Source of the DNA: Amyelois transitella
Taxonomy: Eukaryota > Arthropoda > Insecta > Lepidoptera > Pyralidae
Direction: 5' to 3'
Assembly: GCF_032362555.1 (NCBI RefSeq)
Contig: NC_083534.1
Span: forward strand, 2,260,001 to 2,324,000
DNA: 64,000 nucleotides
The translations under genes and the position numbers were made by a program. This document shows positions 32,131-63,806 of this stretch, one piece after another; the stretch's first letter is position 1, and each line of letters starts with the position of its first letter. The notes under the pieces were generated by a model. It ran no database searches, was not told the origin of the DNA, and saw nothing but the letters and a program-made list of their open reading frames with translations.

Positions 32131-32302
32131 TTTTTTCTGTGACATAAAAGGGTGGTTGATTTTAAAACAATGTTGCATTTGTTATATCCTCAAACACCTT
32201 GCTCAAAACTGTCAAGGTCTATAATATAGTAATTTACCAACATAGCATAACATTTCTATAATTTAATATTATACTGAAGAAGATATTAAAATTGCGTTCC
32301 AG

Positions 32303-35881: not shown

Positions 35882-36822
35882 CTAAGGTTTCCTCTTCTCC
35901 ATCAAGTGGAACCCCTTGGTATGCATCGACAACGACCTTTGGTTCGTAAAAGTGCGCGGACAAGCTTGGCATTTCAACACTTGAGCCGCCATACCGTGGA
36001 TTTCAACTTCGTGACAATTCTTCTTAGTGTAATCTGTGAACCTCTCCGGACAAAAGCTACATTTACTCCTCTTATTAAGTAAAACATGGACCGCTCTTTC
36101 GTGAGCCTTCATTTTAACCCGAGTGTTAAAGATTTTGGAACACCGAGGACATGAGAATTCTCCTACGGCGTGCCTGTAACTGTGGACTTGTAGCATTCTG
36201 TGATTTACAAAGCCAGCGTTGCATTGTTCGCAAACAAAATTGTTATAATGCACATTCATGTGTTCTAATAATACTTTGAAACTATTAGCTGTTTTCTGGC
36301 ATACGGCACAAGATAATGAATCAGTTTCAAATTTGAAAGGGACTATATAGTTTGTTATACCAATATGGACTTGTTTGTTATGGGTTTTGAACAAATGTTC
36401 AATTAAATCGTCTATGCTATGAGCATTTTGATCACATAGTGTACATTTTAGGTCAGTAACGTCCATTTTGACGATAAAAGTAGGTAGTGTTTGGTCTTTC
36501 AAGAATTGTAATTTAGTTTTGATATCGTGGTCATGAAGTGTGTGCAGTTTTAACTTGTTAGGTTCTAGAAATTTCTCATTGCAGAAACAGCAAGCGTAGT
36601 GTGCGCCTATACGGTATTTAATAGGCGTCGCGTTAGAATTTTTCAGCATCTCCCTTATATTCTCTAAGTGTTTTAACAATATACTCTTTCGCTTGATAAG
36701 CCAAGTTTTGGTGGGTTCAGTCGAATCCTTTTCGGATTTGGGTATTTGGATGACATTTTTGTCATCGATGGAACTGTTACCTGATGTCAGCTTAATTCTG
36801 ATAATGGACTTTCGCGGTTTGC
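35882..36822 (-). CDS. Array exon 13 (most distal): C2H2 terminal exon, shortened to seven fingers
   Basis: Begins after TATGTTTCAG in phase 1 and is open for 313 codons to a stop. The lead includes SNATPIKYR, then seven C2H2 fingers from CCFCNEKF to CQACPRTF, matching slots 1-7 of the full-length array exons. It ends HLMEKRKP just where others continue HLMER into finger 8, and no finger remnants follow in 35760-35880. It is the exon farthest from the presumed common 5' exons. Finger spacing, VKMDVTDLKC before finger 2 and FKFETDSLSC before finger 3 match the array. It may be a working short isoform or a decaying end copy. Confidence 0.82.
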
Positions 36823-37792
36823 CTGAAACATAAAACAAATAGATAGAGAATAAATATCTGTTAAAACTATGTCCATTAAAGAGATTATCAACGCAGGTTT
36901 TGTTGCACTAAAGCTGTAAATTGTGCCCCATGTGCTTGTTCGGATGCAAGTGCTTATGTAAGCTATAACTGTAAAGTTTATAATTTATTTAGCATCGATC
37001 TTTAATAAAGATAAGACATAAAAAATAATAGAGACTGCTCCATTTAATACATTCAAGAGCAAGCTCAAGAAGTCTTAGTAAATAAAACATACGCCGTTAC
37101 TCTTATCTGCCCACTCTTTCTGTTTCCGCAGTTAACCAAGGGACAAGAACGTATGCTTTATCACCCGTGAATACCACGTCTAAAACGCTATCACTTTATT
37201 TATCGTAGTTCTTGATACATCTTCTACTCCGTAAGGAGAAAAGACGAAAACTGTAATTGAGATTCTCAGTGACAGGTTGCAAGCTCGCCTAAAAGAAGAT
37301 TCCTAGTTTATAAACATGTATACTAATATTATAAAGCTGAAGAGTATGTTTGTTTGTTTGAACGCGCTAATCTCACGAACTTACTGGTCCGAAGTAAAAA
37401 TATATTTTTGTGTTGAATAGACCATTTATCGAGGAAGGCTTCAGGCTATATAACATCACGCTGCAACTATTAAGAGCAAAGAAATAATGGAAAATGTTAA
37501 AAAAAAACGGGGAAAATTATTCATTCTTGAGGGCTTCAATAATGCCCAAAATAACTATTCCACGCGGACGAAGTCGCGGGCACAGCTAGTAGAATAATAT
37601 GTTTCTTTCCCTCATACGGCTTTTACAATCATTGTGTAAAGAGAAGCAGCTGACACCCGTTTAATCCGCTTCCATTGGAACCTTGTACTATTCAGATAAA
37701 AAGTACCTAGTCGTACTGCTTAGTAAAATAAAAAGCTACAATTAAAACTACAAGTTTTTATTTACTCATTCATGGCACATTTACGAACAAAA
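36823..37792. other. Spacer between array exons 13 and 12
   Basis: A Helitron-like element occupies 37318-37589 (ending cacagctag). The rest shows no exon, ZAD motif or promoter I can support. Confidence 0.6.
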
Positions 37793-38622
37793 CTATACTT
37801 GATGTACATTTTTCTTGTGTTCCACCATCTTGTGTTTCACGATGAAGGCCGTCTCGCAAAATTGACATACATAGTTCCTGAAGTGCGTCGCCACATGAGC
37901 TTCTAGGAGGTCAAATTCTTTGCACACCAACTCACAAACCCCACATTTTATCTCGCCGTCTTCAAATTTAAACGGAACGATTTGTGTTTTAATATTAGGA
38001 TGTATGGTTTCTTGATGAACATCTTTCAAATGATCGATCAAGTCTTGCACGTTATTCATTTTGGTTAGACACATCTTGCACTTAAGCGATGTTATGTCTA
38101 AAAATGTTATAAATTTCGATAGAAGCTTAATTTTGAAGCAGGATGGCTTTCCGTCTTTGTGTTTCTCTATTGAATGTGATTTCAAGTCTCTCGGGTTGAG
38201 AAATTCTCTTCGGCAATAACTGCATCCATATTTATCACCGTTCTTATATCGTACAGGCGTTACGTTAGATGTTTTTATTAATGTTTTGACATTATCTTTA
38301 TGGAAATCTAATTCGGCAAGTCGCGGTTTTCTATCGAACCTCTCTTCTGTTACTTCCATAACTGCTCTTTTAGGTTTCTTCTTTTTTGTTTTCTTTGGAT
38401 TCTTATCGACTAATGGAATAGCTTCTTTATCATCATCGTGGAAAGATATATTGTCGAACTGAGGGCTGCCTTTGCCGCTCTGATCTGGATCAATGAAATC
38501 TGGCTCGATTATTCTCCGTTTCTTTTTAACTTTGGGCTTTTGGGCACTTTCTTGGCCCCAAGGAGCAATGCTGATGATGCTAGAGAAGTTCACTTTTATA
38601 TCGAGACTGATCTTCTCTTGTT
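37793..38622 (-). CDS. Array exon 12: C2H2 terminal exon, shortened to four fingers
   Basis: Starts after TTTCTTTTCAG in phase 1; 276 codons to TGA. The longest basic/acidic lead of the group (KKKRRIIEP, KKTKKKKPKRA) precedes SNVTPVRYK. Fingers: CSYCRREF, CKMCLTKM, CGVCELVC and CQFCETAF, slots 1-4, then the frame ends KKNVHQV at the finger-4/5 boundary. The phenylalanine normally in finger 3 is Cys. No slots 5-10 follow downstream. The KKKRR cluster could serve as a nuclear signal. Truncation at a finger border suggests loss of the 3' half or an early stop retained. Confidence 0.82.
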
Positions 38623-40461
38623 CTGAAAAGAAAATATTATGGATTAATTGTAAATAGAGAAAACTATTTTATTATAGAAGCAGGTAGCAGACTTCAAATC
38701 AAGAAGGGATTTTCGGAAATTGAAACATACCGGTGATTGGGCGGGCTCGAATTTATCGGCTGAGATATCACTTTTCGTATACGGTACGAGGCTGATTTCA
38801 TAGCCGGAGCGCGCGGTCTTAGTAGGTGTGTTTGACTCATAATGGCTTGCTTTGTAAGCAGGACAAGAGTGTAGTCTTATTTTGTAATAATACTGATTTG
38901 ATCAGGCTTCCATATCTATCCATTTACGCAGACAGATAATAACTATACATATACTAAACCCCTATCGCTATGATTTTGGTTTATCTGTCGTTGATTTTAT
39001 TTTGTATTTTTTTCTCTTCTATTTATTTCAAAGCTGTTCTTACATTGAAGGTCAATATCGTGACTCCACGAACAAGTGTTTTATACATTTATGCTTATAT
39101 ACCTACTTAGTTACGCATACTCTCAAGAAGATTGGTTTAGGAGATAACGTGTGAAGGGACAAAAAACTAATAAACTTACTTTCCCATTTATAATATTAAT
39201 TGGTATTGGGATGCATTGTTCTATATATCCTGTGGTACTTCATCATCACTTTGTTCTGACCCGTTTTTATTCGAGACGAGCCTGACGTCTACTGGGTAAT
39301 TCAATTGATATATGGCGACAAGTCTACGTCACACGTTACAACAATAAAAAAAATAAAATCACGCGACGCTATCAGTCAGAAAACAGCGAAAAACCTAAAT
39401 CGCGCAAGCACGGATTGGAGTATATTTACAACCTCCGACACAACATCGTTTATCGCTCGGTTCCCCAGGTATAACACCTAGTCTGGCGGAAGATCTTCCC
39501 TTTGGTGGCGGTCGAGCTGAATCATCGCTCCCGCTACATTGGTATTTTTTTATTGTTGTGTCGTGTGGCGTAGACATGTCGCCACAAATGAAAAACAAAT
39601 TACAGGTTGCCAGCCTATCGCCTAAATATAGTCCAACTTTATAAGCCTTTTCCTAAATTGACTTTACAATCTGCGGACGAAGAGTTAACTTAGATACATA
39701 CATACATATTATCACGTCTATATTCCTTTCGGGGTAGACAGAGGCAGCAGTCTTGAAGATACTGAAAGGCCGAGTTCAGCTGTATGGCTCAATGATGCAA
39801 TCAAGATTCAAATAATGACACGTTGCTAGGCCATTTCAATTATATTTGGAATTAATAGCCTATTACGACATCAATGGGAACGATATGGAGTGCTCCTATT
39901 CTAAAGTGCTGGAACCACACGGCACGCAACAGAGTTAACTTGGCGTTCTATATTCTTATATTTATAGCGAAACTATTGTCACAATTAAAGTAAGCCTAAA
40001 ACAGGTTTTTCAAGCTAAAGAAACAAGTATCCAAAAAAGTACTTCAAACATGTGTTTATTAATATTGCACTTAAAGTTTTTACTGGGATGGGAACATACG
40101 CCTTACAAAAAGAAAGAAGTTACAATTCAGCTTTATATGCTTTAGTGGAAAGCGTTAATTTGATATGTCTGCCTTCGTTTTTCAGTTCTGTAATGGAGTA
40201 ATAAAGTGTTATCTTCCTCCAGGCTTTAGTCCGGGTCACATCACAACGTTTGCAAGGGAACCTCACCTAATTGGATCACGGTCAAAGCTGCATTAGATGA
40301 AAGTGCTTCTATTTCCTTAGTGGTCTTCTAACGACTTCCATTGAAATGAAATAGAGTGGTCCTTTTAAAGTGTCTTAAACCACAAAGCATATAAAGTTTA
40401 TCAGTAGTTTATCACATTTTTCAACAGCTCGTTCGTATTTCTTAGTAAACTGGTCGCCGTT
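38623..40461. other. Spacer between array exons 12 and 11
   Basis: 39415-39590 is a copy of the repeat also at 22720-22935 (cggtcgagctgaatcatcg). 39695-39930 is an R2 copy. The remainder has no supported coding pattern on either strand. Confidence 0.6.
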
Positions 40462-41558
40462 TTACGTAGAATGCTTCGCTCTGACGTGACTCTTTAAAGT
40501 ACAGTGCTGAACAAACGCCTGACCGCAGACGTTACAGGAAAAGCGCCTGTCATCGGCGTGAGACCTCAGGTGCTGCCTTAAAGACTTCTTAGACGCATAC
40601 CATCGGCTACAAGCGTGACATTGAAACGTTTTTGCGCCCGTATGTGCCACCATGTGGTCTTTTAATCTGTGCTTCAAGAAAAACTGCATATCGCACACCG
40701 TACACACGTGTTTTCGCTCCATCAAATGGTCCTTCTTGACGTGGCGAGTCAACGCTCTTTTCGTCACGAAAGTCCTATCGCATGCTTGGCAATTCAACGT
40801 TACTGGTGGCAGACCATGCTTCTTAACCATATGGTCGATCTTCGTCCAATAATCAGCAAATTTCTCATCACAGAATTTGCATTTGTTCTTCTTCTTCAAA
40901 CCTAAATGTATTCTTTGCTCGTGGTCTTTTCGCTTCTGGTCGCAGCTAAAGACCTTATCACAATGTCCACATTTATATGAGCCTGCAGTGTGCCTCCGCT
41001 TGTGTCCCACTAACAGACGTTTTGTTACAAACCCCGCGTTGCACACATCACAAATGAAATTTCTAAAATGTACATGCATGTGTTCTTGCAATATTTTGAA
41101 ATTACTGAACTCCGTTGCACAGACAGCACATTTAAGTACTTCCGAATCAAATTTAAAAGGGATCAACTGACTACAAATATCGGTGTACATGACTTTTTTG
41201 TGTTCTTTTTGAAGATGTGTTGTAATTTCGTTTAAATTATCACTTGGCTTATTACATAATTTACAGGTTAAATTTGTTACATCTAATTTTAGAAGGTACT
41301 GAAAGGATTTGGGTAATTTTAAGTCTTTCACGTCATTATGCTCTTCGGAGAAGTGGAGCTTTAAGTTTTCCGGCTCTGGAAACTTCTTCGGACAAAAATT
41401 GCACACATAACCATCACTATCTTTGTGCCTTATGAGTGAAGCATTTGTGCATAAAAGTATATTCTTTAAATTCTCCTGTTGTTTTCTAGATTCTTTCAAT
41501 AATGGTACTTTCTCAGTTTGTCCGTTATCATCTTCTCTTATTTTTGAGCGTGTTTGAC
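40462..41558 (-). CDS. Array exon 11: C2H2 terminal exon, ten fingers
   Basis: Follows TTCTTTGTAG, phase 1, 365 codons. Lead GQTRSKIRED then TNASLIRHK, a variant of the SNATP motif. Ten fingers in the standard order, from CNFCPKKF to CNVCGQAF; finger 7 is CQACDRTF followed by KKDHLMERKH, finger 10 carries the shared QAFVQ core (with HCTLKSH rather than KCSLKSH). Finger 9 (CHACSRWY) diverges from the SYGRKKTL type of other members. Nothing disabling was seen, so this is the first full-length exon counted from the distal end. Confidence 0.88.
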
Positions 41559-41945
41559 CTACAAAGAAAGAGATTCATCATTTAGTAATCTTTTAGTCAA
41601 CTTATTATTTCTATTATTACCAGTGGTCTATTTTATCCTCATAAAGATTGTAAAATTAATGCTTATGACGGTATAAAGATTGTGCAAATGTGGAGAAAAA
41701 TTATTTGTGATCTAGCTTTATATATCTATGTATTTATGTATCTATTAAGGATTCACCTCAATGCCGTAATAATAATTTCAGTTCAGATAAGTTTAAATGC
41801 AAGGTACCTAAGTAATATATCAACCACACCACAGTTGAGTGTAGCACGTAGTTTCTAAAGCATAACACCTAAAAAAAGGATAAATTCAAAACACCAAAAT
41901 CCCTACAAACAAATGAAAGATATGTCGTGTTCTTCTAGACACAAT

Positions 41946-43090
41946 TTATTGCTGGTTTTCTTCAGACACAGATTTTAAATCTTCTTTGTGCTTTGACGTC
42001 AAATGTATTCTTAATCGCGACTTCTGCATGAAAGACAGCTCGCATTTCATGCACTTGAACTGTCTATCCGCATGTACTCTCCTCATATGATCTTTTAAGG
42101 TCTTTAATCTCCCATAGAATTTCATACAGATTTCACACTGATGTTCCCTAGAACCCGTATGCTTCACGGCATGATCGTTGAGCTCCCTTTTGGAGAAAAA
42201 CTCCATCTCGCATTCACTACATTTATGTTGCTTCTGCATCAAATGCACCCTCTTGGTATGAAGCAACCATCCTTGCCGTGTGTCAAATGCTTTATCACAC
42301 GCTTGGCATTTGACACTAGGGCTCTTAACACCATGAACTTCAGCCAAATGCTCGTTTTTGTACCAGTTTTCTCTGAACCTCTGATTGCAGTAGCCGCATT
42401 TGTGCAAATTCATGTCACCATGTGCCGATCTAATGTGGAATTTCCGTTTTCTTACTGTCTCGAATACTAGCTGACAATGGTCGCATTTGAAGCTCCCTAT
42501 CCTATGTATTTCAGTGTGACAATAAAGTATATGTCTGTTAACAAATCCAGCGTCACATACATCGCAAACAAAATTTCTATAATGTGTATTCATATGTTCT
42601 TGAAGAACTTTGAATTTATTGAAAACGTTTAGGCACATGAAACATCTTAACGTATCACCTTCGAATTTGAAAGGCAAAATATGATTTTTTACATCAGGAA
42701 ACGTCTCATGATTATGACTAGCATTCAAATGTTCTATCATAGCTTCTACTGTGTCAATATTTTCATCACAAATTTTACATTTTAGCGCGGTAATATCTAG
42801 TTTTACAACATAACTTATCATGTCTCTTCCTTTCATGAAAGTGGACTTTTCACTGTCATCGTGTGATTCATTGGTATGCCTTTTCAAGTCTCCAGGGTCA
42901 GGAAACTGATCTTTGCAGAAGCAGCAAGCATAGCCGACACCGCCGCGGCATCGTATGGGGGTCGCGTTTGAGTACAGTATAACCTCTCTGGCATTCACGC
43001 GATGTTTCTGTAATTCGGCGCCCGGTTTTATTTTAACTTGTTTCTTCTTTTTAAGTTTCGCCTCAAGTCTTTCAGATTTTGTTTTCATAC
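41946..43090 (-). CDS. Array exon 10: C2H2 terminal exon, ten fingers
   Basis: Starts after TTTTTTGTAG in phase 1, 381 codons to TAA. Lead GMKTKSERLEAKLKKKKQVK then SNATPIRCR. Ten intact fingers, CCFCKDQF to CMKCELSF. The tenth has lost the QAFVQKCS signature (LSFMQKSRLRIH), and finger 9 is CEICMKFY, so the C-terminal pair differs most from the group here. A short acidic tail (EDLKSVSEENQQ) follows. An AATAAA overlaps the stop (CAATAAATT). It is only 387 bases from exon 11. Confidence 0.88.
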
Positions 43091-44574: not shown

Positions 44575-45731
44575 CTATCCGTCTATATCCCGATGCTTCG
44601 ACCTCATGTGGCCGGCCCAGCTGCACTTCTGCACAAACGCCTGACCACAATATTCGCACTTAAACCTCCTATCATTCGCGTGTATTCTCATATGCTCGGT
44701 CAGCGTCTTTCTCCTACCGTAAGACTTCAAGCACACGTTGCATTGAAAGTTCCTTTCGCCGCTATGCTTAACTTTATGTTCTGTCAACTCGTGTTTCGAA
44801 AAGAACCTCATGTCGCAATCTGGACACTTGTGATGCCTTTCCATCAAGTGATCCCTTTTAGTGTGAATCCTCAATTCGTTCATACTGTTGAACACTTTAT
44901 CGCAAGCCCGGCATTTCACTGTGACTTTCTTCACTCCGTGAACAGCCGTCATATGATCAGCTTTGCTCTTCGTACCGGTAAATTTTTCATTACAAAAAGC
45001 GCATTTGTGCAACAGATTCAAATATATGTGCACAGCTTTCTCGTGCAGTTTCTTTTTACGGTATGTGTTGAATGATTTTGGGCAGAAATCGCATTTGAAC
45101 TCCCCAAGTTTGTGACAACTTCTGTGGGATAATAACTTACGTTTGTTAATGAAACCAGAGTCACAGTCTTCGCAGATATAATTTCTACAGTGTGCATTCA
45201 TATGCTCTAAGAGAATCTTGAATTTATTGAAAACGTTTGAGCATATATAGCATTTGAGCACATCGCCATCAAACTTGATCGGCACACAGTGATTATTTAT
45301 ATCTGTATGTATTTTCATCTTATGAATTATTTGGAAATGATCTAAAAGCAGTTCTATAGTATCCAATTCTGATTCGCATAAAGTACATTTCAGATTTGTG
45401 ATATCCATTTTAACATAAAATCTATTCAATTGTTCCTTTTCTGGTATCAGTTTAGATTTTTCATTATCATCGTGTGTGTCTAACGTATGTTTCTTCAGAT
45501 CAGCTGGATTTAAATAATTTTTGCGACAGTAACAGCATGAATACCCGAGGCCAGTGTTGTTATATATGGGCGTAGCGTTCGAATGGAGCAGTATTTCTGT
45601 AATGTTTCTCCTATGTTTACTCATCAAATCGTTTTTAATCAATATAAGCTTGGCTTTATCTTCCTCTATTTTTAATCTTAGAAGAGGTTTCTTTCTTACT
45701 TTTTCTTGTTGCATGCCGGACCGTAGGCCAC
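44575..45731 (-). CDS. Array exon 9: C2H2 terminal exon, ten fingers
   Basis: Follows TTTCTTTGTAG, phase 1, 385 codons. Lead GGLRSGMQQEKVRKK then SNATPIYNNTGLGYSC. Ten intact fingers, CCYCRKNY to CEYCGQAF; fingers 9 and 10 are the typical SYGRRKTLTEHMRIH and AFVQKCSWAGHMRSKH. Its lead and finger order match the neighbour at 47238-48370 more closely than any other (GGQRSG lead, NSTGLGYTC, HCRNYIC in finger 3-4), so the two are probably a recent tandem duplication. ATG in the lead is not needed as a start because the acceptor lies upstream. Confidence 0.9.
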
Positions 45732-47237: not shown

Positions 47238-48370
47238 CTAAAGTAAATCATTGTGCTTCGATTTCAAGTGACTTTTTAAAGTGCACTGGTACGCGAACTT
47301 CTGATCACAGTACTCGCATTTGAATCTTTTATTACTCGTGTGGATCCTCATATGTTGCTTCAAATTAAACTTCCTTCCAAAGCGCTTTAAGCATACATCA
47401 CACTTAAAATTCTTTTCCTTACTGTGCTTGAGTGTGTGATCAGATAATTCAGTTTTAGTGAAAAAATTGCTTTCGCAATCGGGACATTGGTAATTCCGCT
47501 CCAATAAATGATCCCTTTTTATATGTACCCTCAAACTCCTCGTATTAGCAAACTCCTTGTCACAAGCCACGCATTTCGCTTTATTCTTTATCACGCCATG
47601 AACAGCAGCCATATGATTATCTTTGCTTATCATAGTCGTGAACTTTTTATCACAAATATTACACTTATGGCATAAATTTAAAAGTACATGCACCTGCTTT
47701 ACATGCATATTCTTCTTGTGTAACGTGTCAAAACTTTTGCAGCATACTTCGCAATCTAAGCTGCCGCTTCCTAACTCGTGACACTTTTTATGGCTTACTA
47801 ACTTCCTTTGATTTATAAATCCCGCATCACACACGTCGCATATATAATTTCTGCAGTGAGTATTCATGTGTTCAAGTAAAATTTTGAATGCATGGAAAAC
47901 ACTGGAACATTTGTGACATTTCAGTTCATCACCCTCGAATTTTAATGGGAGGCAATGATTTTTGATATCCGTATGGATTTTAATGTCATGATCTGAATGG
48001 AGATGTTCCAAAAGCGACTCTATATCATCGACTGCAGAGTCACATATGGTACATTGCAGGTCTGTTATATCCATTTTAACATAAAATTTATTCCAATTGT
48101 CCTTCTCTACCAGTTTAGATTTCTCAACATCATTATGCGTCTTCAATGTATGTTTTTTTAGATCACTTGGATTCATATAATTTTCCCTACAATAACTACA
48201 AGTGTATCCAAGACCGGTGCTGTTAAATATAGGTGTTGCATTAGAATTGAGTAATATTTGTGTAACATTGTTTTTTTGTTTACGCATAATATCTTTCAAA
48301 ACAAGCCTGTTTACTTGCTGTGTTTTATTAGTGCTCAATTTTTCTTCCACGTTACCGCTCCGTTGGCCAC
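47238..48370 (-). CDS. Array exon 8: C2H2 terminal exon, ten fingers
   Basis: Follows TTTCTTTATAG, phase 1, 377 codons. Lead GGQRSGNVEEKL then SNATPIFNSTGLGYTC. Ten intact fingers from CSYCRENY to CEYCDQKF. Finger 5 is CEVCCKSF after a longer GSGSLD linker. Finger 10 keeps Gln and Cys in the helix but reads KFAYQCTLKSHLKSKH, so its DNA contacts should differ from the AFVQKCSW group. Close paralogue of exon 9. Confidence 0.9.
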
Positions 48371-48972: not shown

Positions 48973-50123
48973 TTAGACCAATGCCCCATGCTTCGCTCGC
49001 ATGTGACTCTTCCAACTGCACTTCTGCACAAACGCCTGTTCGCAATGTTCGCATTTAAACCGCCTATCATCAGCATGAATCCTCATATGCTCCGTCAGAG
49101 TGTATTTCCTCCCGTAAGACTTATTACACACATCACAATGATATTCCTTCACACCTGTATGCGATAGCCTGTGATCCTTCAACTGAGATGCTGAAAAAAA
49201 AGATTTCTCACAGTCGCTACAAGCGTGCGTTCTCTCCATTAGATGATCTCTCTTTGTGTGGTAATACAACCTCTTTAAAGAAACAAATTCTTTCTCGCAA
49301 GCTTGGCATTTGAACGGTGACGTCTTAATACCGTGAACCGATGATATATGTTCTTCTTTAATACGTAACAACGAAAATCTTTCACTGCAGTATCCACATT
49401 TAAACATTTTCCTATATTTATGTACTGCTTTTTCATGCCCCTGTTGTTTTGCCAACTTGTCGAATGTTTTGGCGCAAAAGTATGAGCCAGTGATATGAAG
49501 TGTCTTATGAAGAGCTAACTGCCGCAAATTAACGAAGCCTGCGTTGCAAATCGCGCAAAAATAATTACTATAATGAGAATTCATGTGTTCTAGCAGAGTC
49601 TTGAACTTGTTAAAAACATTTAAACACATGAAACACTGCAGACTTTCCGTCTCAAACTTGAACGGCAATATGCGACTTTTAATATCTAAAAACACTTTAA
49701 TATCGTGTTTCTCATTTAGGTGTTTGAGAAAAATTTCAACATTCTCTATAGAATCGTTACAGATTTTACATTTAAGCCGGGTGATGTCTAGTCTAACATT
49801 ATATTCGAATAACCTCTTTCTTTGCATAAAGCATGCTTTTGAGATATCATTATGTTCGTTAATACTATGTTTTTTGAGATCAGCAGGATCGGGGAACTGC
49901 TCCGGGCAGTAGCAGCAAGTGTAGCCGATCCCGCCACGACTCTTAATAGGTGTGGCGTTAGAATTTTTCATAATCTCATTTATATTAACGTAATGTTTTT
50001 TTAGCTCGTCAGCATTTGCCAATTTCTTGTCTGTCTTCAACTTTGTCATTAAACTTCTATTTTCGGTCTCATTAAGGATTTTCATTGAAGTTTTCACGAG
50101 TTTTGCGTCAATCCGACGACTAC
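48973..50123 (-). CDS. Array exon 7: C2H2 terminal exon with one broken finger
   Basis: Follows TTTTGTTTGTAG, phase 1, 383 codons. Lead GSRRIDAKLVKT then SNATPIKSRGGIGYTC. Nine intact fingers, CCYCPEQF to CEHCEQAF. In slot 5 the usual C-x-x-C is lost: GSYFCAKTFDKLAKQQGHEK reads three residues short of its homologues, removing one zinc cysteine while the frame is kept. The rest, including SYGRKYTLTEHMRIH and AFVQKCSWKSHMRAKH, is normal. The break turns the adjoining fingers into a spaced pair instead of a continuous row. Confidence 0.9.
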
Positions 50124-50841: not shown

Positions 50842-52034
50842 TTACAGGGTCTCATCATGCTTGGATCTCATGTGGCTTCTCCAGCTGCATTTTTGCACGA
50901 ACGCCTGTCCACAGTGCTCGCATTTGAACCGCCTGTCGTTATTGTGTATCCGCATGTGCTCCGTCAGCGTCTTCTTTCTCGGGTACGCCTTCAAGCACAC
51001 CTCACATTTGAAAGACCGCACGCCAGTATGCGACACCATGTGATTTTTCAATTCAGTTGTCGTGGAGAACTTCATATCGCATCGAACGCACGCGTGAGGT
51101 TTGTGCATCAAATGATCTCTTTTCTGATGGATCGTGTAACTCGAACGAGTTGAAAACGTCCTGTCACAAGCGTGACATTTCAATCCACTGGATTTCACCC
51201 CGTGCACGTCGGCCAAATGCTTTTCTTTAGTTTGAAACCATTTGAAGGTCTCTCTGCAGTATCCACATTTGAACAGTTTATTTTTATTACTATGCGCCAG
51301 TTTTTCATGCATAGTTTTCGCCGATTTTGTTTTGTATATTTTCGGACATAGGTCACATTTGAATGATCCGATTTGATGGGATATCTTGTGACCTTTCAAA
51401 TTACGGAGATTGACGAATCCGGCTTCACAGACGTCGCAAATGTAATTCCTAAAGTGTGATGTGTAAACGTGTGATAAGAGCGTTTTAAATTTGTTGAAAG
51501 CATTGAAACAGATGCAGCACTGAAGACATTCGGTGTCAAATTTGAACGGCAAAAAGCGATTTGTAACGCCCTTATAAACTTTAATACAGTGTTCTTCAGC
51601 CAAATGATTTATCAATCCATCTATTGTGTCTATATTTCCATCGCAAATGTTACAATGTAAACCAGTTATATCCAGTTTAACATAAAAATCGAAAAGTGTC
51701 TCTTTCATGAAGTAAGCTTTAGAAATATCAGGATGGTTTAATGATGTATGGGTCTTTAGATTTGCTGGATCTGGGAATTGTTCCGGGCAGAAACTGCACA
51801 CATAACCTATCCCAGCGTGACCTCTTATGGGCGTTGCATTCGAGTTCATTATTATTTCCTTTATATTAGTTTTGTGTTTGTGGATTTCATTAATTGCTAT
51901 CATCTCAATTGATTTCTCATCATCACTATTCCTTCGTAATTTATTATTCACCATTTCGTTTTTAGGTAATCTGTTTTGCCAAGTGCTTTTCTTAACCTCA
52001 ATCTTTTCAACTTTGATTGTTATCCCGTGGTGAC
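50842..52034 (-). CDS. Array exon 6: C2H2 terminal exon, ten fingers
   Basis: Follows TTTTTGTTTGTAG, phase 1, 397 codons. Lead GHHGITIKVEKIEVKK then SNATPIRGHAGIGYVC. Ten fingers, CSFCPEQF to CEHCGQAF. Finger 3 is CCICFNAF with an extended VYTSH spacing before the FRNYIC join (one residue more than in other exons). Fingers 9 and 10, AYPRKKTLTEHMRIH and AFVQKCSWRSHMRSKH, are typical. Best-preserved member together with exon 5. Confidence 0.9.
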
Positions 52035-53586: not shown

Positions 53587-54743
53587 TCATAGCGTTAACC
53601 CGTGCTTTGAACTCAAATGTCCTTTCAAACTGCACTTCTGTATAAACGCTTGCCCACAATGTTCACATTTAAATCTCCGATCATCGTTATGGATTCTCAT
53701 GTGCTCCCTCAATGTCTTCTTCCTTCCGTAAGACTTCTTGCAGACTTCACATTTGAACAACTTCAGCCCCGTATGCGTCAGCATGTGGTTTGACAATGTG
53801 AAAGAACTAGAGAAACTCTTGTCGCACTGTGAACACTTATGAGGTCTCTCTAGCAAATGATCACGTTTCATATGTACAGTGAACATCCTTCTACTCGTGA
53901 ACACTTTTTCACAAGCCTGGCATTTAATCTTCAGCTCTGGCACTCCATGTGCTTCGACCAAATGCTTCTGCTTCGAGAGGTAAGACTTGAAAGTTTGATT
54001 ACAACAGCCGCAGCGATTCATATTTTTTGATATGACGCTGTGCACCGCCTTTTCGTGCAACTTTTTCTTCCTGTCCGTGTCGTAAACTTTGTCACAAAAA
54101 CTGCAGTTGAACGTCCCTAAGATGTGACACTCCTTGTGCGTCAGCAGGTGTCTCTCATTAACAAAGCCGGCGTCACAAATATCGCACACGAAATTTCTGT
54201 AATGCGCGTTCATGTGTTCTTGTAATTTTTTGAATTTCGTGAACATGTTGGAACAAACATGACATTTTAGCTCCTCAGTATCGAATTTAAAGGCAAGGAT
54301 ATAATCTTTCAGATTCATATATATTTTCTTATCATGTACTGAATTCAAATGATCCATAAGTGTTTTTATATCTTCAACATTTTGCTGGCATAATTTGCAT
54401 CGAAGCGCTGTTATATCTAACTTAACAAAGTAATCACCCAAACCCCTTTTCTTGAACTGGAGATTATGTACAGTAGAGTGCGTGCCATCTGTGTGTTTTT
54501 TCAAATCAGCTGGTTTTGGAAACTGCTGATCGCAGAAGAAACAGGAGTACCCTAGTCCTCCATAGCACCGTATGGGTGTTGCGTTCGAAAATTGCAGTAT
54601 CATTTTCAAGTTCATATGATGCTTCTTTAACTCCTCTCTTTTAGCCTTTTTTTCGCTTAGAGTTTCTTTGAAAGGTGATCTTATTTCTCCTTCTTTGACT
54701 TCGTTTTGAAATCTGTCTCTTTCTTTTTTAACACGTCGACCAC
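53587..54743 (-). CDS. Array exon 5: C2H2 terminal exon, ten fingers
   Basis: Follows GTTTTCTTCGTAG, phase 1, 385 codons. Very basic lead (GGRRVKKERDRFQ ... KKAKREELKKHH-like) then SNATPIRCYGGLGYSC. Ten intact fingers, CFFCDQQF to CEHCGQAF, with SYGRKKTLREHMRIH and AFIQKCSLKGHLSSKH at the end. The first ATG in the frame lies about 40 codons in; since the frame is open back to the acceptor that ATG is not evidence of an independent gene. Confidence 0.9.
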
Positions 54744-55787: not shown

Positions 55788-56950
55788 TCACATAATAACG
55801 TTGTGCTTGGTTTTCAAATGCAACTTAAGACTACATTTCTGAACAAACGCCTGCAGGCAGTGCTCACACTTCCATCTCCTATCATCATTGTGTATCTTCA
55901 TGTGCTGTTTAATACTTTTCTTGGTCGTATAGGACTTTTTACACAGCTCACATTGGAACATCTTCATTGGCAAATGCGTCAACCTATGATTCTCTAAACC
56001 GACTTTAGCCGAGAAATTTTTAGGACACTCCATGCATTGAAATGGCCTTTCCAGTAAGTGATCACGTCTCATGTGGAGATTAAAACTCACTTTCCTTGTG
56101 AACACCTTATCGCAAGCGTTGCAAGGGAACTCCTCAGGAGTATATCCATGTTTCTCTACCAAATGTTTCTTCTTGTAATGATGTTCCTTGAAAGTTTCGT
56201 CGCAATATCTGCACCGGTGTTTATGAATCATTTTATGTACATGAGCCTCGTGCTGCCTCCATTTACCCAAAGTGTCGAAAACTTTCGAGCACGTGTCACA
56301 TTTAAAAGTGCCTGTTTCATGTATTATTTTATGCTTGCTCAGTCTCGAATGGTTGACGAACCCTTCATCGCAAATATTACAAACGAAATTCCTATTATGC
56401 GAGTTCATGTGCACCATTAGAATTTTAAAAGATTTGAATTTCTTCGAGCAAATCGCGCATTTTAGTTCGTCGGTATCAAATTTGAACGACATGAGGTAAT
56501 TTTTCAAGCCCACGTACAAGTTATATTCGTGTACCGCTTTCAGATGTTGCATAAGCGTCTCAACTGTATCGATATTCAGATCGCAAAGTTTACAACGCAA
56601 CTCGGTTATGTCCAATTTGACAAGATAGTTTCTTAGCGAAATTTTAGCGAAATTAATTTTTGGATTGATATGGTCTTTCATATTGTGATTTTTAAGATCG
56701 GCCGGGTCACTAAAGCGCTGTTCGCAGAAGAAACAGCTGTACCCGGCCTCTGTGCAGCTTTGAAGGATAGTAGCATTGGAATATCTCAATATCTTCTTTA
56801 AATTCAACAGGTGAAGCTGCAATTCGCACATGGACTCTGCCTTAGAATTGCGAAACAGTTTTATCAAATCCTTACTGTCCTTCGAGGTTTTCGTGAAAGC
56901 CGGATCGGAGTCCAAAAGATGGAAAACTTTACCGCCCTTATCGTAGTCAC
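55788..56950 (-). CDS. Array exon 4: C2H2 terminal exon, ten fingers
   Basis: Follows TTTTTGTCGTAG, phase 1, 387 codons. Lead GDYDKGGKVFHLL then SNATILQSCTEAGYSC (Thr-Ile instead of Thr-Pro). Ten fingers from CFFCEQRF to CEHCLQAF. Linker before finger 2 is VKLDITELRC; finger 9 reads SYTTKKSIKQHMKIH and finger 10 AFVQKCSLKLHLKTKH. A transposable element begins immediately after the stop, so its own 3' UTR and poly(A) site may be replaced. Coding sequence is undamaged. Confidence 0.9.
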
Positions 56951-57818
56951 CTACGACAAAAATAATAACGTTACACACGAATGAACCGATAAAGTTTGAA
57001 CGACTCAAAATATAACTCCGCAAAAATAAGTAGCAAAATATGCATCTTGACACTTATCATGACTTTTACTAGGAAACAGGCTCAAGACTCGAAGGCCACA
57101 TTTAGGATCAAAGGTATTTAATATTTATCGAGCTAAGCATCGATGAAGATTTTTAGTTACTTGAAGATTTAATAAAACCGAACGAGACAGTTATAATAAA
57201 AAGTACTAGAGTAAGAACGGTGTAAGGAACTGTAACTTAGCCTCTGTAAATAAGTGATGAGTTTTATGTGTATCAATATCATCCCACCCATAACATTCTG
57301 TAAAAAACTAGCCAAGTTTCGATGGAGCTGCTTGTTTATCTCTAAAAAGTTATGAAATCTAGACAAAGTCGTGCCAAGTCTAAGGCTCATAACTGCGATT
57401 TCTTATTTATTAAAGTCAATAAAATATGGCTGGCCGTTGAATAGTTTTTATACGTTAGTGGGTACAAGTCAACGGCCAGCAGGGTAGACAGAGCCACCTG
57501 TCTTAAAAAGACTAAAAGGCGACGAGCACTTGGTTTAACAACCATTATTCTGACCCTGTTAATAAGTTTCCCTTAAGGTCATGAAGATCAGAGGTACACG
57601 ACATGATATCTACTGGTTATCAGCGGACCCCGGATATTCCTATGTATATAGACAAAGAAACGAGTTTACTTCAGTCCACTAATGCAAAAAAAAATATTAT
57701 TTCTAAACAGGGTGACCAACCAAAAAACATAGATAAATAATACCTCCTCATCGTTAGCAGGCATTTATTGAATAAGAATTACAGAATCAGAATAGTTTAT
57801 GCCTTGTTAATAAATAAT
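56951..57818. other. Spacer between array exons 4 and 3
   Basis: No named repeat except a weak R2-like piece near 57480-57540 (gggtagacagagccacctgt). Minus-strand AATAAA near 57765 may serve exon 3. Confidence 0.5.
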
Positions 57819-59083
57819 TTACAATGTTTCACCATGCTTTGACCGCATATGGTTTTGCCAACTACACTTGTAAATAAACGTGTGTCCACATTTCGCGCAC
57901 TCGTATCTTCTGTCATTTAAATGAATACGCAAATGCTCTCTGAGGGTGAAGCTTCTTGCGAACTCCTTTGCGCAAAACTCGCACTTGAATTGTTTCTCAC
58001 TCGTGTGTTTAAGCTTATGTTGCTTCAGCCCCTTCGAACTGAAGAACTTCGCGTTACACTCTGTGCATTCATAATTCCTCTCCAGCAAATGATCTCGCTT
58101 TGTGTGTACCCTTAATTGAACTTTAGAACTAAACACCTTTTCACATGAGAGACAATTTAGTGTGACCGGCTCGGCGCCATGCTCCTCGACCATATGTTTT
58201 TTCCTAGTATAATAATCGACGAACTTCGCCGGACAATGTGGACATTTGTTCTTCAATCGATTTCCTATGTGCACGTGATTCTCGTGAGTACACCTTTTCC
58301 CATTACTGCTGAAAACCTTTTCACAGTAGCTGCATTTGTAAGCACCTTGCTCGTGCCGTTTCATATGACATTTATAGGCATGCATATTGACGAAAGGTTT
58401 ACTACAATCATCGCACACATAATTACTATAATGCGCGTTCATATGTTCCTGAATTTGCTTAAAACTCAAATAAACATTCGAACAGATGACGCAAGTTGAT
58501 ATAATATTATTATCTTTACTCTTTGAAAATTTAAAGGGAAGAATGTGATCCTCAATGTCGGTAAAGAATTTTTTATCGTGATCATCGCGTAGATGATTGA
58601 GAAGTTCTTTTAGATTTTCCATTGCAGTATGACATATATAGCATTTAAGGTCTGTGACATCTAACTTGGCTACGTAGTTTATCATTGGAGAACCTTGCAT
58701 AAACGTCGTTTTCTCCGATTCGTCGTGTTTGTCTAATGTGTGTCCTTTCAAATCCGCTGGGTCAGTAAAGCATTCGGCGCAAAAGGAGCAGAGGTAGCCT
58801 GAAGAGAGGTAAGATTTAATTGGAGTAGCATTAGAGTAGAGGAGGATCTCTCTGATGTTGTGTAAATGTTTTGCCATCAATGACTTGGGAGAGCCTATTT
58901 TTGAACGTGTTTTTCGGGATCCTGATTTCTTTCTGGGCTCATTATTAATTTCCGTTTTAGTAAAAGTAGTAGAAATGTCTTGGTCTATGTTTTTCGTGAG
59001 ATTATCAATTTTCATTAGATTTATTTTTGAATTACTTACATCTGGCTCATTTGCCTGTTTATTAGTGGCTTCGCTGCCGTAAC
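57819..59083 (-). CDS. Array exon 3: C2H2 terminal exon, ten fingers, longest lead
   Basis: Follows CTTTTGTTCGTAG, phase 1, 421 codons. Lead of about 90 residues (GYGSEATNKQANEPD ..., with KKSGSRKTRSK) before SNATPIKSYLSSGYLC. Ten intact fingers, CSFCAECF to CAKCGHTF. The linker before finger 3 has an insertion (SKSKDNNIIST) not seen elsewhere, which lengthens the gap between fingers 2 and 3. Finger 10, TFIYKCSWQNHMRSKH, keeps the KCSW helix core. Finger 6 (CPHCPAKFVDYY) resembles that of exon 1 at 62557. Confidence 0.9.
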
Positions 59084-60225
59084 CTACGAACAAAAGTAGC
59101 GAATTAACAATTTAATTTTTTTACACTATGATACTAATATTATAAAGTGTAAAGATTTGTATTTCTTTTTTCTTTGTAAGTATTTAGAGATGGTAAAGTA
59201 TTTGAATGATTTTTATTTGATGAAATTTGGACAGACATGAACTAGACCTTCAAGATCGGCTACCTTTATTTCTAGGAAGCGAAGCCTTAGGCAAAACCTA
59301 GTTGAAAACAAATTGTTGCTTCTAGTGTTTTGTTCATATTTAATCATCTGTTCGTGCAATCCTGTCACCTGTACCTTGCCTATCACATCATTTTTTTAGA
59401 TATCGCGATCGCTTTTTTATCGAGCTTTTGATCCTTTTGTTTATATTGACTTTGAAATTCTTTTGAAGACACATTTACCAAATCTATAAGATGGGACTGC
59501 CACCCCAGACTTAAGTGGGTAACTGAATTGGTTTCCGTGGGATATAATTATCGTATGGGAGACACGATACGGAGTTTGAGAAAATCAAGATAAAACTAAT
59601 TTTATTATCAAATCATCACCAACAAAGCCCCGCCACATCGCAAGAATTGATTAATTTCTTGCAATTAGCCTTCCGCCAACTTTCAGTCATGATAGATCAT
59701 CATCGTCGAGAGGATCTTGCCTCTGTCATACATTAGAGACACAAAGGTATTAGGTAGGTAATAGTGATGACCTTTAGCGACTTATTCTAATCCAACTAAT
59801 ACGGCCTCTGTGGCGCAGCGGTAGTGCGCTTGTCTGTGTCACCGGAGGTCCCGGGTTCGAATCCCGGCCAGGGCATGATGAGAAACGAACTTTCTCTGAT
59901 TGGCCGGGGTCTTGGATGTTTATCTATATACGTATTTATGATAAAATATAGTATCGTTGAGTTAGTATCTCGTAACACAAGTTTCGAACTTACATCGAGG
60001 CTAACTCAATCTGTGTAATTTGTCCCGTATATATTTATTTATATTTAATAATCTGATGTAAACTCTTACACTCCACATTTTCCCCTCCAATCAAAATATT
60101 CTGCCATTTCTTTCTCTATCTCAATAACCAATGATGTATTTAATAAAAATCAATCAACTCATTTCACAAGATACCTATATATTATAACAAATAGGTGACA
60201 GAATATAAATGCGTACAACTATGTA
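59084..60225. other. Spacer between array exons 3 and 2, containing a tRNA-derived SINE
   Basis: 59800-60050 is a plus-strand SINE with box A TGGCGCAGCGGTAG, box B GGTTCGAATCC and the ATTT tail; it is one of the best-kept copies. 59125-59310 is a decayed Helitron-like piece. No exon seen. Confidence 0.65.
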
Positions 60226-61331
60226 CTATTGAGTATTCGACATGCATTTGGGAACAGTCTGGGCCATCATTGAACTCTTTGAGATTCCGTGGTTCTTCTT
60301 CATGTGCTTCCCTTTGCTATTCTGAGTCGCGTACGCTTTCCCACAAACCTCACACTTGTACTTCCTCTCGTTAGTGTGCGTCGCCAAGTAGTGCCCCAGC
60401 ATATGCCGCTTCACGAAGAAGCCCATACTGCAAACCGAGCACTCGTAAGGTCTCTCTTTCAAATGCACACCGCGCATGTGCAACATCAAATTTGATTTCA
60501 GATGGAATTTCTTCTCACACATATCACATTTGATACCTTCAGCGTTATGCACCTGAATCATGTGGCGTGTTTTTTGATAATAATTCTTAAACCTAGCTTT
60601 GCAGATCTGACAAACGCTGTCTCCAGCAATGCCTTTATGCTCCGTGTAAACATGCGCCTTCCGTTTAGACTCGGCAGCGAAGACTTGCTCGCAATGTTTG
60701 CACGGGAAGCTGGATTTCTTCTTTTCATGCGTCGTCTCATGTCTGTTCAAACGGAAACTATTCACGAAACCAGCGCCGCACACCGTACAGATGAAATTCC
60801 TATAATGCTTATTCATATGCTGCATCAATAGCTTCATGTTGTGGAAAACTTCCGTGCAAAGGCAGCAGTTGAGTTGCTGTTCATTCGTCAACTTGAACGG
60901 CTGGAAATAATCTGTTATTCCTTCGTAGAACTGCTTATCGTGAACCCTGACTAGGTGTTCCGTCAGGACGTTCAGTGTTTCCATAGGTTGATTACATAAT
61001 GTACATTTCAGATCTACTATATCTAACATGGCCACGAAACTGGCTATTCCACTGCCCGCTTTGTACGACGGTTTGTCTCTGTCGTGATCGTTATGCGTGT
61101 GACACCTCAGAATCTGTGCATCAGGGAAGGTTTTGTAGCAGTATGCGCATATATATCCTGCGTCGTTTCTATCTTTGAAAGGAGTGGCGTTAGAGTATTT
61201 TAGTAGTAGATTGAGGTTATGCCACTGCTTCTTCATCTCGGGCACGTGTTTCTCACGGTAAACTACGTCAAGCAACTCTGTCTCACCTTCCTCCTTAATC
61301 GCTTTTCGTTTTTTTGACGCCCTCGTTTTAC
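60226..61331 (-). CDS. Array exon 2: C2H2 terminal exon, nine fingers, finger 10 replaced by a tail
   Basis: Follows TTTTCTTTTATAG, phase 1, 368 codons. Lead GKTRASKKRKAIKEE (possible nuclear signal) then SNATPFKDRNDAGYIC. Nine fingers, CAYCYKTF to CEVCGKAY; finger 9 is followed by a serine/methionine-rich end (GISKSSMMAQTV) rather than finger 10. Finger 8 has an HYLATH spacing. Finger 5 has a longer KKKSSF linker. Loss of finger 10 with a clean new end looks like a stable variant, but a past frameshift is also possible. Confidence 0.88.
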
Positions 61332-62556
61332 CTATAAAAGAAAAATAATCGTTCACGCGACGTTTAGTCTTCTTAATTTATAAACAGTACATCTGAGGAT
61401 ATGAAGCTTTGCACAGCCAACAACTCTAAGCATGCCACACTCTTCTTTACATTTTCTTCTATAGAATCTTTTTCATCTTCCAAATGTCAATAGCATAACT
61501 TTTAAGCCTTTTATAAAGTCTAGTCTTTCATGAGTATTTCTTTAGAAATTATTATTAATTTGTACAAAAATAACTTTAGAAATGGTCGTAGTGCAGAGCA
61601 TTTTTAGGGGTAATGAGTTTACATAAACATTAAATTTAAGTTAGGTCAGAGCTTCGATGACCGTACGGTTAACATTTTTTAATACCTTCAGCGTAATGCA
61701 ACTCTACTTTAAGGTCTTAAACCAAACGTGATTCGCAATTTCTAATCCTATCGTAGTCATGCACCACATTTCGTCACATTCTATTCTAAGTTTGGATACT
61801 TGTGAAATTGACGTTGTTGAAGAAAATGCTGCATTGCAGTTTGTTACCGCTTCTTCTGCACTGACGCCTTGGAAGCGGTAGTAAACTTAGTTTTTAAGTA
61901 ATTTATTTGACGTCAACCAATGTTGTGAAACTAAAAGTTTTGACGATCATTAAGCGATATGAAGTATCCTATAATAATGAATAAAAAATTTGAATTTGAA
62001 TAATTTCTTTGTTAAAGTGACAACGAAGAGGTTATCTTTAACTTTTTAAATAATATTTTCTTCGTTCAAGTACAAAGAGATATTTTTGTCATGAGCGTGT
62101 GTGATAGAATGAGTAAGAAAATACGGCATTATTTCTGAAATTATTAAAGAAGAGTGGCTTTGTTTATTAGTGTCTATGGCTATCCGTACAGCGAGACAAA
62201 TATTTGCTTAAAAATAAAACGAAGTATTTATAGGTATACATAATATTTTATTCTATTATCTATTTTTCTCAATATAATTATAAAAATTGCGTTAAAAACG
62301 TGGCGTGTATAGTAAAATAATTTTTACAACATTATTATAGTTAAAGTAAACCTTGTGTTTGTAATAAATAAAGTTGTAAATACATTTTTAATAAACCTAC
62401 CGGTTGTAGGTGTATGTAATGGTACATGATGCAGCATCACTACTAATGAACTTGGGGCAGAAACACATTTTTTCACAAACTTAGTGTAAAATAAAACGAT
62501 AATCTAATGGCGATTCTCTCAACATAAAATATCTGTGTAATGTATTGTTGAGTTTA
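61332..62556. other. Spacer between array exons 2 and 1
   Basis: 61800-62000 is a degraded LINE 3' end (accgcttcttctgcactgac ... aatgaataaaaaattt). 62220-62550 is AT-rich; a minus-strand AATAAA overlaps the stop of exon 1 (GTTAATAAAC) and another lies near 62245. Confidence 0.5.
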
Positions 62557-63806
62557 TTAACATCCTTCCATCTGACCAGTAAAGTCATTCTTCATCTTCT
62601 CTGCTTGCTCTTTCCTCCTACTTTCCGCTGCTATCTCTTTCAGCGTCAACTCTCTATTGTCAATTAAATGTTTAACATCATCGAACTCTTTGAAAATGTC
62701 TAGATCGTCCTGATGCAGTCTTACATGGCTTTTCAAGCTGCATTTCTGCATGAATGTCTTCTTGCAGATCTCGCACTGATATCTCTTGTCGTCCTCGTGC
62801 AATTTCATGTGTTCCTTCAGGGTTCTCGGTCGGGAAAACGTCTTCCCGCAAACATCACAAGTGCAGACCTCCCCACCCGTGTGTCTCGATATGTGATCCA
62901 CCAGTCCGCGCTTCGAAAAGAATTTAGCGTTACACTTATCGCACATAAAGCTGCGCTGCTGCAAATGATGATGCTTTATATGCCTGTTCAGTTCGAATTT
63001 CTTCTTGTAGGTCTTGTTGCAAGCATTACACGGATACACTATCGGCGTTTCGTTATGAACCCTAACTAGATGTTCGCTCCTGTCGTAATAGCTCACGAAA
63101 ATTTCCGGACAATGTGGACATTTATTCCTTAACCAACCACCCGTGTGGACTCCTTTCTCGTGGTTGCGTTTCTTTGTCAAAGACGTGTAGGATTTCTCGC
63201 AATATGCACAGGGGAATATGCCCTGCGCGTGCGTCTTTCTGTGCTTCCTCAAGGCTGCTATAGTTATGTATCCGGCACCGCACTTCTTACAACAATAGTT
63301 CCTGTAATGACTGCTCATGTGGTGATACAAATTCTTGAACGACACATGAATGGCGGAGCAAATTTCGCATGTGAAGTTCGAGCCGTTCTCCAATCGGAAC
63401 GGTAGAATTATGTCTTTTATGTGCTTGTGTATAATTTTATTGTGAATACTGATCAAGTGGTCCTTCAGATCGATCAGATCCCTCAACGGCAGATCGCAGA
63501 CTGTGCATTTGAGATTGGTGATGTCCAACTTTATGGGGTTATAACTGAGTTTGTAGTCTATCATCGAGTTAAGTTTCTCTTTTTCTGATTGGAGCGCCGT
63601 GTGGGACCTGAGTTCGTCTATATTTTGGAAGGATTTAGCGCAATACAGGCAGGAGAAGCCACGTATGGTCTTGTCTCGGAACGGACTGGCGTTGGAATAC
63701 TGCAGTATGGCAGTAAGGTTCACCCTGTGCTCTACGCGCTCCGGTGTCGCGCTAACGTCCCCCTTTTTTTTCTTTTTCTTTCGCTTGGGCGCGTCGCCGT
63801 CCGTTC
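62557..63806 (-). CDS. Array exon 1 (most proximal): C2H2 terminal exon, nine intact fingers plus tail
   Basis: Follows TTTCTTGTTATAG, phase 1, 416 codons. Lead GTDGDAPKRKKKKKKGD contains a run of six lysines, then SNASPFRDKTIRGFSC. Slot 1 (CLYCAKSFQNIDELRSHTAL) lacks the second zinc histidine, so nine fingers should fold, ending CEICKKTFMQKCSLKSHVRLH. A 50-residue charged tail, rich in Glu and Lys, follows and is unique in the array. The upstream ATGs near 63870 lie in the intron before the acceptor and give no ZAD. Common 5' exons must therefore be to the right of the window. Confidence 0.88.

What the first reader, a model, noticed from the sequence alone, without database searches (positions are those of the whole stretch)
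35882..63806. Thirteen tandem, phase-1, self-terminating zinc-finger exons: a candidate alternative-terminal-exon locus
Seen: thirteen homologous minus-strand exons, each with its own acceptor, all in phase 1 and each with its own stop; none has a credible start codon and no ZAD exon, donor or promoter is visible between them. Known: lola and mod(mdg4) join a common 5' part to alternative 3' zinc-finger exons; insect ZAD proteins have phase-1 joins like those in the two plus-strand genes here. Inference: one upstream ZAD-type module beyond 64000 is joined to one of thirteen DNA-binding ends, giving many proteins with the same dimerisation domain and different DNA targets.
Basis: partly seen in the sequence, partly recalled or inferred. 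Interest (0 to 1): 0.9.

Follow-up and report, generated by a model that had tools for sequence, protein, structure and literature searches.

The report
One dimerisation module, thirteen DNA-binding ends
In a moth or butterfly chromosome, single start modules of an insect transcription factor (the ZAD domain) are each followed by a long row of interchangeable zinc-finger end exons (13 here, 11 and at least 25 in two sister loci), so one gene could plausibly make many factors with the same partner-binding domain but different DNA targets; RNA data are still needed to show it.

Summary
In detail: all 13 minus-strand zinc-finger (ZF) exons are there, each with an acceptor at the stated base, phase 1, and its own stop. 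Beyond the window lies one two-exon ZAD module on the same strand, coding 73089-72952 and 72640-72499, ending in a phase-1 donor. Spliced in silico it passes Pfam's zf-AD cut-off (E 2.7e-11). Three searches found no other ZAD among the 13 exons.

The chromosome carries two sister loci: one ZAD with 11 ZF exons, and one ZAD with at least 25. Best acceptors there are phase 1 in 11 of 11 and 24 of 25 exons. ZAD first exons were found in 0 of 46 array gaps, against 6 of 7 stand-alone ZF exons of the family. In the sister loci 11 of 33 measured gaps are under 260 bp; in this array the shortest is 387 bp.

Best reading: a lola-like alternative-terminal-exon locus built on ZAD instead of BTB. No transcript evidence was available; cis versus trans splicing is open.

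The parts
62557..63806 (-). terminal ZF exon 1 (nearest the ZAD), phase-1 acceptor, own stop; no in-frame ATG before finger 1. The shared ZAD exons lie beyond the window at continued coordinates 73089-72952 (C30:2332952-2333089) and 72640-72499 (C30:2332499-2332640), minus strand
   Evidence: ZAD exons:
60226..61331 (-). terminal ZF exon 2
57819..59083 (-). terminal ZF exon 3
55788..56950 (-). terminal ZF exon 4
53587..54743 (-). terminal ZF exon 5
50842..52034 (-). terminal ZF exon 6
48973..50123 (-). terminal ZF exon 7
47238..48370 (-). terminal ZF exon 8
44575..45731 (-). terminal ZF exon 9
41946..43090 (-). terminal ZF exon 10
40462..41558 (-). terminal ZF exon 11; no in-frame ATG before finger 1
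37793..38622 (-). terminal ZF exon 12, shortened (4 fingers)
35882..36822 (-). terminal ZF exon 13 (most distal), shortened (7 fingers)

Best explanation
The 13 exons are alternative last coding exons of one ZAD zinc-finger gene about 37 kb long (window 73089 down to 35882). A promoter upstream of about 73.1 kb makes a transcript whose first two coding exons encode one ZAD. The single phase-1 donor after ZAD exon 2 is spliced, mainly in cis, to one of 13 phase-1 acceptors, and each choice brings its own linker, 4-10 C2H2 fingers, stop and 3' end. The result is a family of proteins with an identical ZAD and different DNA-binding ends, able in principle to form mixed dimers. Shown: the exon anatomy, the phases, one ZAD found per array, and recurrence in two sister loci. 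Inferred: the splicing choice itself, cis rather than purely trans joining, ZAD dimerisation (known for the family; recalled) and the different targets.
For: One ZAD pair per array: two genome-wide homology searches list, inside arrays A (window), B and C, no ZAD half other than the single pair at each upstream end. Around the window one search recovered all 8 ZAD pairs that I know of, one search recovered 7 of 8. A motif-plus-donor scan gives 0 of 46 inter-exon gaps against 6 of 7 stand-alone ZF exons of the family. The three array ZADs pass the zf-AD cut-off after in-silico splicing (E 2.7e-11, 1e-8, 3.3e-9). All six ZAD second exons measured are 3n+1 long, hence phase-1 donors, matching best acceptors of phase 1 in 13 of 13 (training set), 11 of 11 and 24 of 25 ZF exons. 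Acceptors persist although silent sites are saturated (pS 0.77-0.94 in 21 listed pairs; pN below pS in 78 of 78 pairs in A and 55 of 55 in B), so splicing into these exons has been kept over a long time. Stop-to-next-acceptor gaps in B and C go down to 67-68 bp and are under 260 bp in 11 of 33 measured, against about 590-1600 bp for the three array ZAD pairs. ZF exons duplicate alone: identity falls with rank distance (r -0.40, -0.40, -0.49; permutation p 0.0018, 0.0008, 0.0002), and group labels need 6 changes on the tree against 27.3 shuffled. All 49 ends fetched lie on the ZAD's strand. Fingerprints are distinct in 13 of 13, 11 of 11 and 25 of 25.
Against: No RNA evidence of any kind. 11 of 13 exons hold an in-frame ATG before finger 1, so internal starts are not excluded. 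In array A itself 11 of 12 gaps are longer than its ZAD pair (602-1839 bp), so the lack-of-room argument comes from B and C. AATAAA within 400 nt of the stop: 17 of 26 minus-strand exons against 0.525 at random gap positions, not convincing. Introns are long (8.7 kb to the first exon, about 36 kb to the last). Donors of the B and C ZADs are non-consensus (GTTTGT, GTTAGT), as are stand-alone ones (GTTGGT, GTGACA, GTACTT). A first exon unrelated to ZAD in each gap cannot be excluded; the ZAD-N pattern was shaped on stand-alone loci, so its 6 of 7 is partly built in. Phase 1 is also the best phase in 6 of 7 stand-alone exons, so it does not by itself show sharing. -1/2/3/6 residues diverge little or no more than other exposed positions (identity 0.277 v 0.289 in A, 0.208 v 0.270 in B, 0.192 v 0.213 in C). 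On the best tree two stand-alone exons (77438+, 81636-) fall inside array A and array C needs 4 changes, though strongly supported branches do not rule out one origin for either.
Confidence: 0.8

Rival explanations
1. Purely trans-splicing, as at mod(mdg4): the ZAD transcript and separately promoted ZF transcripts are joined between RNA molecules.
For: In Drosophila mod(mdg4) all isoforms, and in lola some, arise this way (PMC12692577 and PMC1947980, passages); gaps in array A are 387-1839 bp, room for promoters.
Against: All 49 array ends fetched lie downstream on the ZAD's own strand, no opposite-strand tandem C2H2, whereas mod(mdg4) acceptor exons lie partly on opposing strands. Gaps of 67-68 bp in sister arrays leave little room for promoters. 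No element was shared by the first 600 nt after the three array ZAD donors.
Confidence: 0.12
2. Thirteen separate ZAD-less ZF genes, each with its own promoter and a start codon inside the exon or in an unseen small first exon; the ZAD at 73 kb serves only the nearest exon.
For: 11 of 13 exons have an in-frame ATG before finger 1; room for promoters in array A gaps; tandem ZAD-ZNF gene clusters are ordinary in Drosophila, though there each gene has its ZAD (PMC9810180, passages).
Against: Best acceptors are phase 1 in 48 of 49 array exons (13 of them the training set) despite saturated silent sites, which private internal starts would not need; Met positions are not shared (at most 4 of 13); two exons have no ATG before finger 1; gaps as small as 67 bp in sister arrays.
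Confidence: 0.07
3. Partly decayed array (compatible with the best explanation, so its odds overlap): the ZAD joins the proximal exons, and the distal ones (35.9 kb, 37.8 kb) are truncated relics.
For: The two most distal exons lack C-terminal fingers; 37796 has the longest end branch of array A (0.95), while 35885 (0.52) is not unusual.
Against: Both keep an acceptor, an open frame and N-terminal fingers; pN 0.43 against pS 0.83 between them.
Confidence: 0.15

Closest known systems
lola (longitudinals lacking), Drosophila
   Same: A common N-terminal BTB region joined to one of about 20 unique C-terminal exons, most with zinc fingers, by cis- and trans-splicing (PMC1947980, passages; PMC11426971, passages).
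   Different: lola's common part is BTB and most ends carry one or a few fingers (finger number recalled); here the common part is ZAD, the ends are mutual paralogues with up to 10 fingers in this array (16 in four exons of array B), and three such loci sit on one chromosome. Joining not shown here.
mod(mdg4), Drosophila
   Same: More than 30 isoforms from one common 5' part and alternative 3' exons (PMC12692577, passages).
   Different: BTB plus mostly FLYWCH ends (PMC11426971, passages); exclusively trans-spliced, acceptor exons partly on the opposite strand; here all ends fetched are on one strand.
ZAD-ZNF gene clusters (M1BP, odj, CG14711 and others), Drosophila
   Same: ZAD plus C2H2 genes expanded by tandem duplication with shared intron positions (PMC9810180, passages).
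   Different: There whole genes were duplicated; here the terminal ZF exon was duplicated behind one ZAD.
cucoid, culicine mosquitoes
   Same: A ZF gene orthologous to Drosophila ZAD-ZNF genes, with three transcripts that differ in their 3' ends / alternative last exons (PMC6783274, PMC9810180, passages).
   Different: Three 3' ends, of which the A form is called non-truncated, not a row of full paralogous finger arrays.

Membership tests
ZAD-ZNF (zf-AD, PF07776) transcription factors | N-terminal zf-AD domain over the curated cut-off | tested here: met
   Spliced ZAD 44.0 bits against cut-off 28, E 2.7e-11
ZAD-ZNF (zf-AD, PF07776) transcription factors | C-terminal C2H2 finger array | tested here: met
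   C2H2 families over cut-off in 5 of 5 exons scanned (5 of 13 given); 4-10 fingers each by pattern in 13 of 13
ZAD-ZNF (zf-AD, PF07776) transcription factors | ZAD homodimerisation | not testable with these tools
   Recalled for the family; no PDB chain matched the sister (array B) ZAD by sequence at E<=1
lola / mod(mdg4)-type alternative-terminal-exon locus | One common 5' coding part, many same-phase alternative 3' coding exons with own stops | tested here: met
   By DNA anatomy:
lola / mod(mdg4)-type alternative-terminal-exon locus | mRNAs that join the common part to each end | not testable with these tools
lola / mod(mdg4)-type alternative-terminal-exon locus | Common part is a TTK-group BTB domain | tested here: not met
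   Common part is zf-AD, the only Pfam family reported for it at E<=0.001
mod(mdg4) trans-splicing | Acceptor exons on both strands | tested here: not met
   0 tandem C2H2 on the opposite strand in the three arrays
Ordinary tandem ZAD-ZNF gene cluster | Each ZF exon has its own ZAD exons | tested here: not met
   0 of 46 array gaps v 6 of 7 stand-alone ZF exons; searches agree

The most novel reading that the evidence does not exclude
Three ZAD genes on one lepidopteran chromosome act as many-ended cassettes (13, 11 and at least 25 ends; a 26th by protein hit only), evolving by duplicating just the terminal DNA-binding exon behind a fixed dimerisation module: about 50 transcription factors from three promoters, potentially combining within and between loci, a ZAD counterpart of lola and perhaps an economical insect answer to KRAB-ZNF gene clusters.
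Probability: 0.5. Interest if true: 0.82.

Novelty: new variant of a known kind. Interest (0 to 1): 0.68.

Why it matters
If true, insect zinc-finger repertoires can grow by adding terminal exons, without whole-gene duplication, under one promoter and one dimerisation domain. Automated annotation might split such loci into many ZAD-less genes and mis-state gene counts; the silkworm survey that assigned 56 C2H2 genes to chromosome 24 and 50 to chromosome 11 (PMC6613534, passages) would be worth re-reading in that light (my inference, not tested). It also gives a countable system for asking how splicing picks one of 13 to 25 similar acceptors.

Tried and rejected
Poly(A) signals as proof of terminal exons: AATAAA within 400 nt in 17 of 26 minus-strand exons against 0.525 at random gap positions; uninformative. 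A hand-made acceptor score chose in-exon AGs for several exons; replaced by a matrix. The ZAD first-exon scan listed no real one, that only three (22164, 74137, 154653); one search found eight, the array ones included. The whole-genome Pfam search missed the plus-strand ZAD at 22.2-22.6 kb, which one search found. dN/dS: silent sites saturated, so only pN<pS is reported. Faster evolution of DNA-contact residues: not clearly seen. Shared intron element after array ZAD donors: none. PDB relatives of the ZAD by sequence: none. Structure prediction was not tried because a spliced protein is not letter-for-letter in the DNA. Lola of this genome as a positive control was not tried.
Full report
Setting. 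The window is C30:2260001-2324000 of a 327-Mb, 33-contig genome. Chorion_1 matches over the cut-off at 16 places, 15 on C28 and 14 of those within 1.51-1.58 Mb, indicate a lepidopteran (that the family is lepidopteran is recalled). To follow the finding I fetched C30:2180001-2444000 around the window and C30:1599001-1658800.

Observation. All 13 ZF exons exist as described: minus strand, AG acceptor exactly at each stated base, phase 1, own stop (13 of 13). They align with a consensus leader motif (SNATPI) before finger 1 and 4-10 fingers. The claim that none has a start codon is softened: 11 of 13 have some in-frame ATG before finger 1, at positions shared by at most 4; two have none.

The predicted module. 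Beyond the window's end, on the same strand, lies one ZAD encoded in two exons: coding 73089-72952 (window coordinates continued, = C30:2332952-2333089; ATG, CRCC..., donor GTAAGT) and 72640-72499 (= C30:2332499-2332640; phase-0 start, phase-1 donor GTAAGT). Pfam's zf-AD model independently hits the second exon at C30:2332524-2332643 (E 0.00124), a sister ZAD hits both exons, and the spliced protein scores 44 bits against a cut-off of 28.

Is there another ZAD among the exons? Three tests found none. The whole-genome zf-AD search with E<=10 lists minus-strand hits in C30:2180001-2444000 only at window 72.5, 85.2, 114.6 and 152.8 kb; its sensitivity is limited (it missed the plus-strand ZAD at 22 kb, and the 85.2-kb hit has E 0.63). 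A search with the array-B ZAD recovered all 8 ZAD pairs of the region and, inside the three arrays, only the one pair at each upstream end. A scan for C.CC followed by a GT donor 36-38 codons later has a ZAD first exon for 6 of 7 stand-alone ZF exons but in 0 of 46 array gaps (12+10+24; my tally from the list); other pattern matches there were a zinc finger inside an exon (54012) and five copies of a tandem repeat 20-21 kb below the window. The pattern was shaped on the stand-alone loci, so its sensitivity there is partly built in.

Sister loci. Array B: ZAD at 115427-114526 (window coordinates continued), followed by 11 ZF exons (109801 down to 87815). Array C: ZAD at C30:1658043-1656441, followed by 25 ZF exons in the fetched stretch; a further family hit at 1597959-1598405 lies outside it and was not read. 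Stand-alone units with one ZAD and one ZF exon are at 81636-, 142554-, 12755+, 77438+ and 121650+. A plus-strand ZAD at 22.2-22.7 kb precedes two ZF exons, 28457 and 32290. The family is nearly confined to C30: 70 of 73 matches to a 206-residue exon piece lie there (which scored 150 of 226 candidates; some exons match twice).

Splice logic. The second ZAD exon is 3n+1 nucleotides long in all six loci measured. With an acceptor matrix trained on array A, the best AG is phase 1 in 11 of 11 exons of B (some weak, 102067 weakest) and 24 of 25 of C, and in 6 of 7 stand-alone exons. Phase 1 is therefore a family trait, not in itself proof of sharing; the weight rests on the 1:13, 1:11 and 1:25 ratios. 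Gaps from one stop to the next acceptor are as short as 67 (B) and 68 bp (C), and under 260 bp in 11 of 33 measured (one gap of C was left out because its acceptor is ambiguous); in A the range is 387-1839 bp. Counted from the ATG, the ZAD pairs of A, B and C span 591, 902 and 1603 bp (one search printed 594, 911 and 1609 because a few bases too many were taken). In A only one gap is shorter than its ZAD pair, so for the window itself the case rests on the searches, not on lack of room.

Evolution. On a tree of 56 ZF exons, group labels need 6 changes against a shuffled mean of 27.3; B is one side of a branch (93/95); A needs 2 changes because two stand-alone neighbours fall inside it, C needs 4, and strongly supported branches do not rule out one origin for either. 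Within each array identity falls with distance in rank (Mantel p 0.0018, 0.0008, 0.0002), and the best match is a physical neighbour for 6 of 13, 8 of 11 and 17 of 25 exons. The terminal exon therefore appears to have duplicated locally without the ZAD. Silent sites are saturated, while pN<pS holds for 78 of 78 pairs in A and 55 of 55 in B (8 pairs looked at in C): old, constrained exons. Finger fingerprints (-1, 2, 3, 6) are all distinct, but these positions diverge little or no more than other exposed ones (lower identity in 6 of 10, 6 of 9 and 6 of 10 fingers); different targets are likely but not shown.

Mechanism. Most likely one promoter above 73.1 kb, a constant ZAD, and a choice among 13 last exons with coupled 3'-end formation. 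In B and C, where gaps are very short, the 3' end of one isoform may overlap the acceptor region of the next, which would couple cleavage and splice choice (inference). Trans-splicing, known at mod(mdg4) and lola (passages), is not excluded, but all ends fetched share the ZAD's strand and no common element was found in 600 nt after the array donors. Poly(A) signals did not help.

Known and new. The logic is that of lola and mod(mdg4) (passages), but with ZAD in place of BTB and with mutually paralogous multi-finger ends. In Drosophila, expansion of the cucoid clade of ZAD-ZNF genes is described as tandem gene duplication (PMC9810180, passages), and turnover by gene gain and loss is described for ZAD-ZNF genes generally (PMC7655104, passages). 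Seven searches of the open-licence library, of whose hits I saw the first 6 to 20 each, listed no paper on a ZAD locus with many ZF ends; subscription papers, preprints, supplements and database annotations were not searched, so others may have annotated such isoforms. I file it as a new variant of a known kind: by anatomy it works like lola, but it is not a BTB gene, and transcript joining is untested.

Noticed in passing
C30:1599900-1658043 (L029-L034): A larger sister locus: one ZAD pair followed by 25 same-strand ZF exons (a 26th hit lies outside the fetched DNA).
   Followed up: partly
window coordinates continued 87812-115427 (L011-L014): A second sister locus: one ZAD pair followed by 11 ZF exons, four of them with 16 fingers; the stop of exon 102067 and the acceptor of exon 100153 are only 67 bp apart.
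   Followed up: yes
window 22152-33072, plus strand: One ZAD pair (22.2-22.7 kb) precedes two ZF exons (28457, 32290), with what looks by eye like a partial copy between them at 31153-31413: perhaps a small two-ended version with a decaying third end.
   Followed up: partly
C30:2487167-2498046, plus strand: One ZAD pair followed by three family ZF hits on the same strand; sequence not fetched.
   Followed up: no
window 14854-16851 and 17969-18595, minus strand: Long open frames (665 and 208 aa) of unknown kind; the 665-aa frame has no Pfam match at E<=0.001, the 208-aa one was not scanned. The copy-number search stayed unanswered.
   Followed up: partly
C30 position 2432501-2437500 (window coordinate 172501-177500): A run of exactly 5000 N, an assembly gap or withheld stretch.
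   Followed up: no
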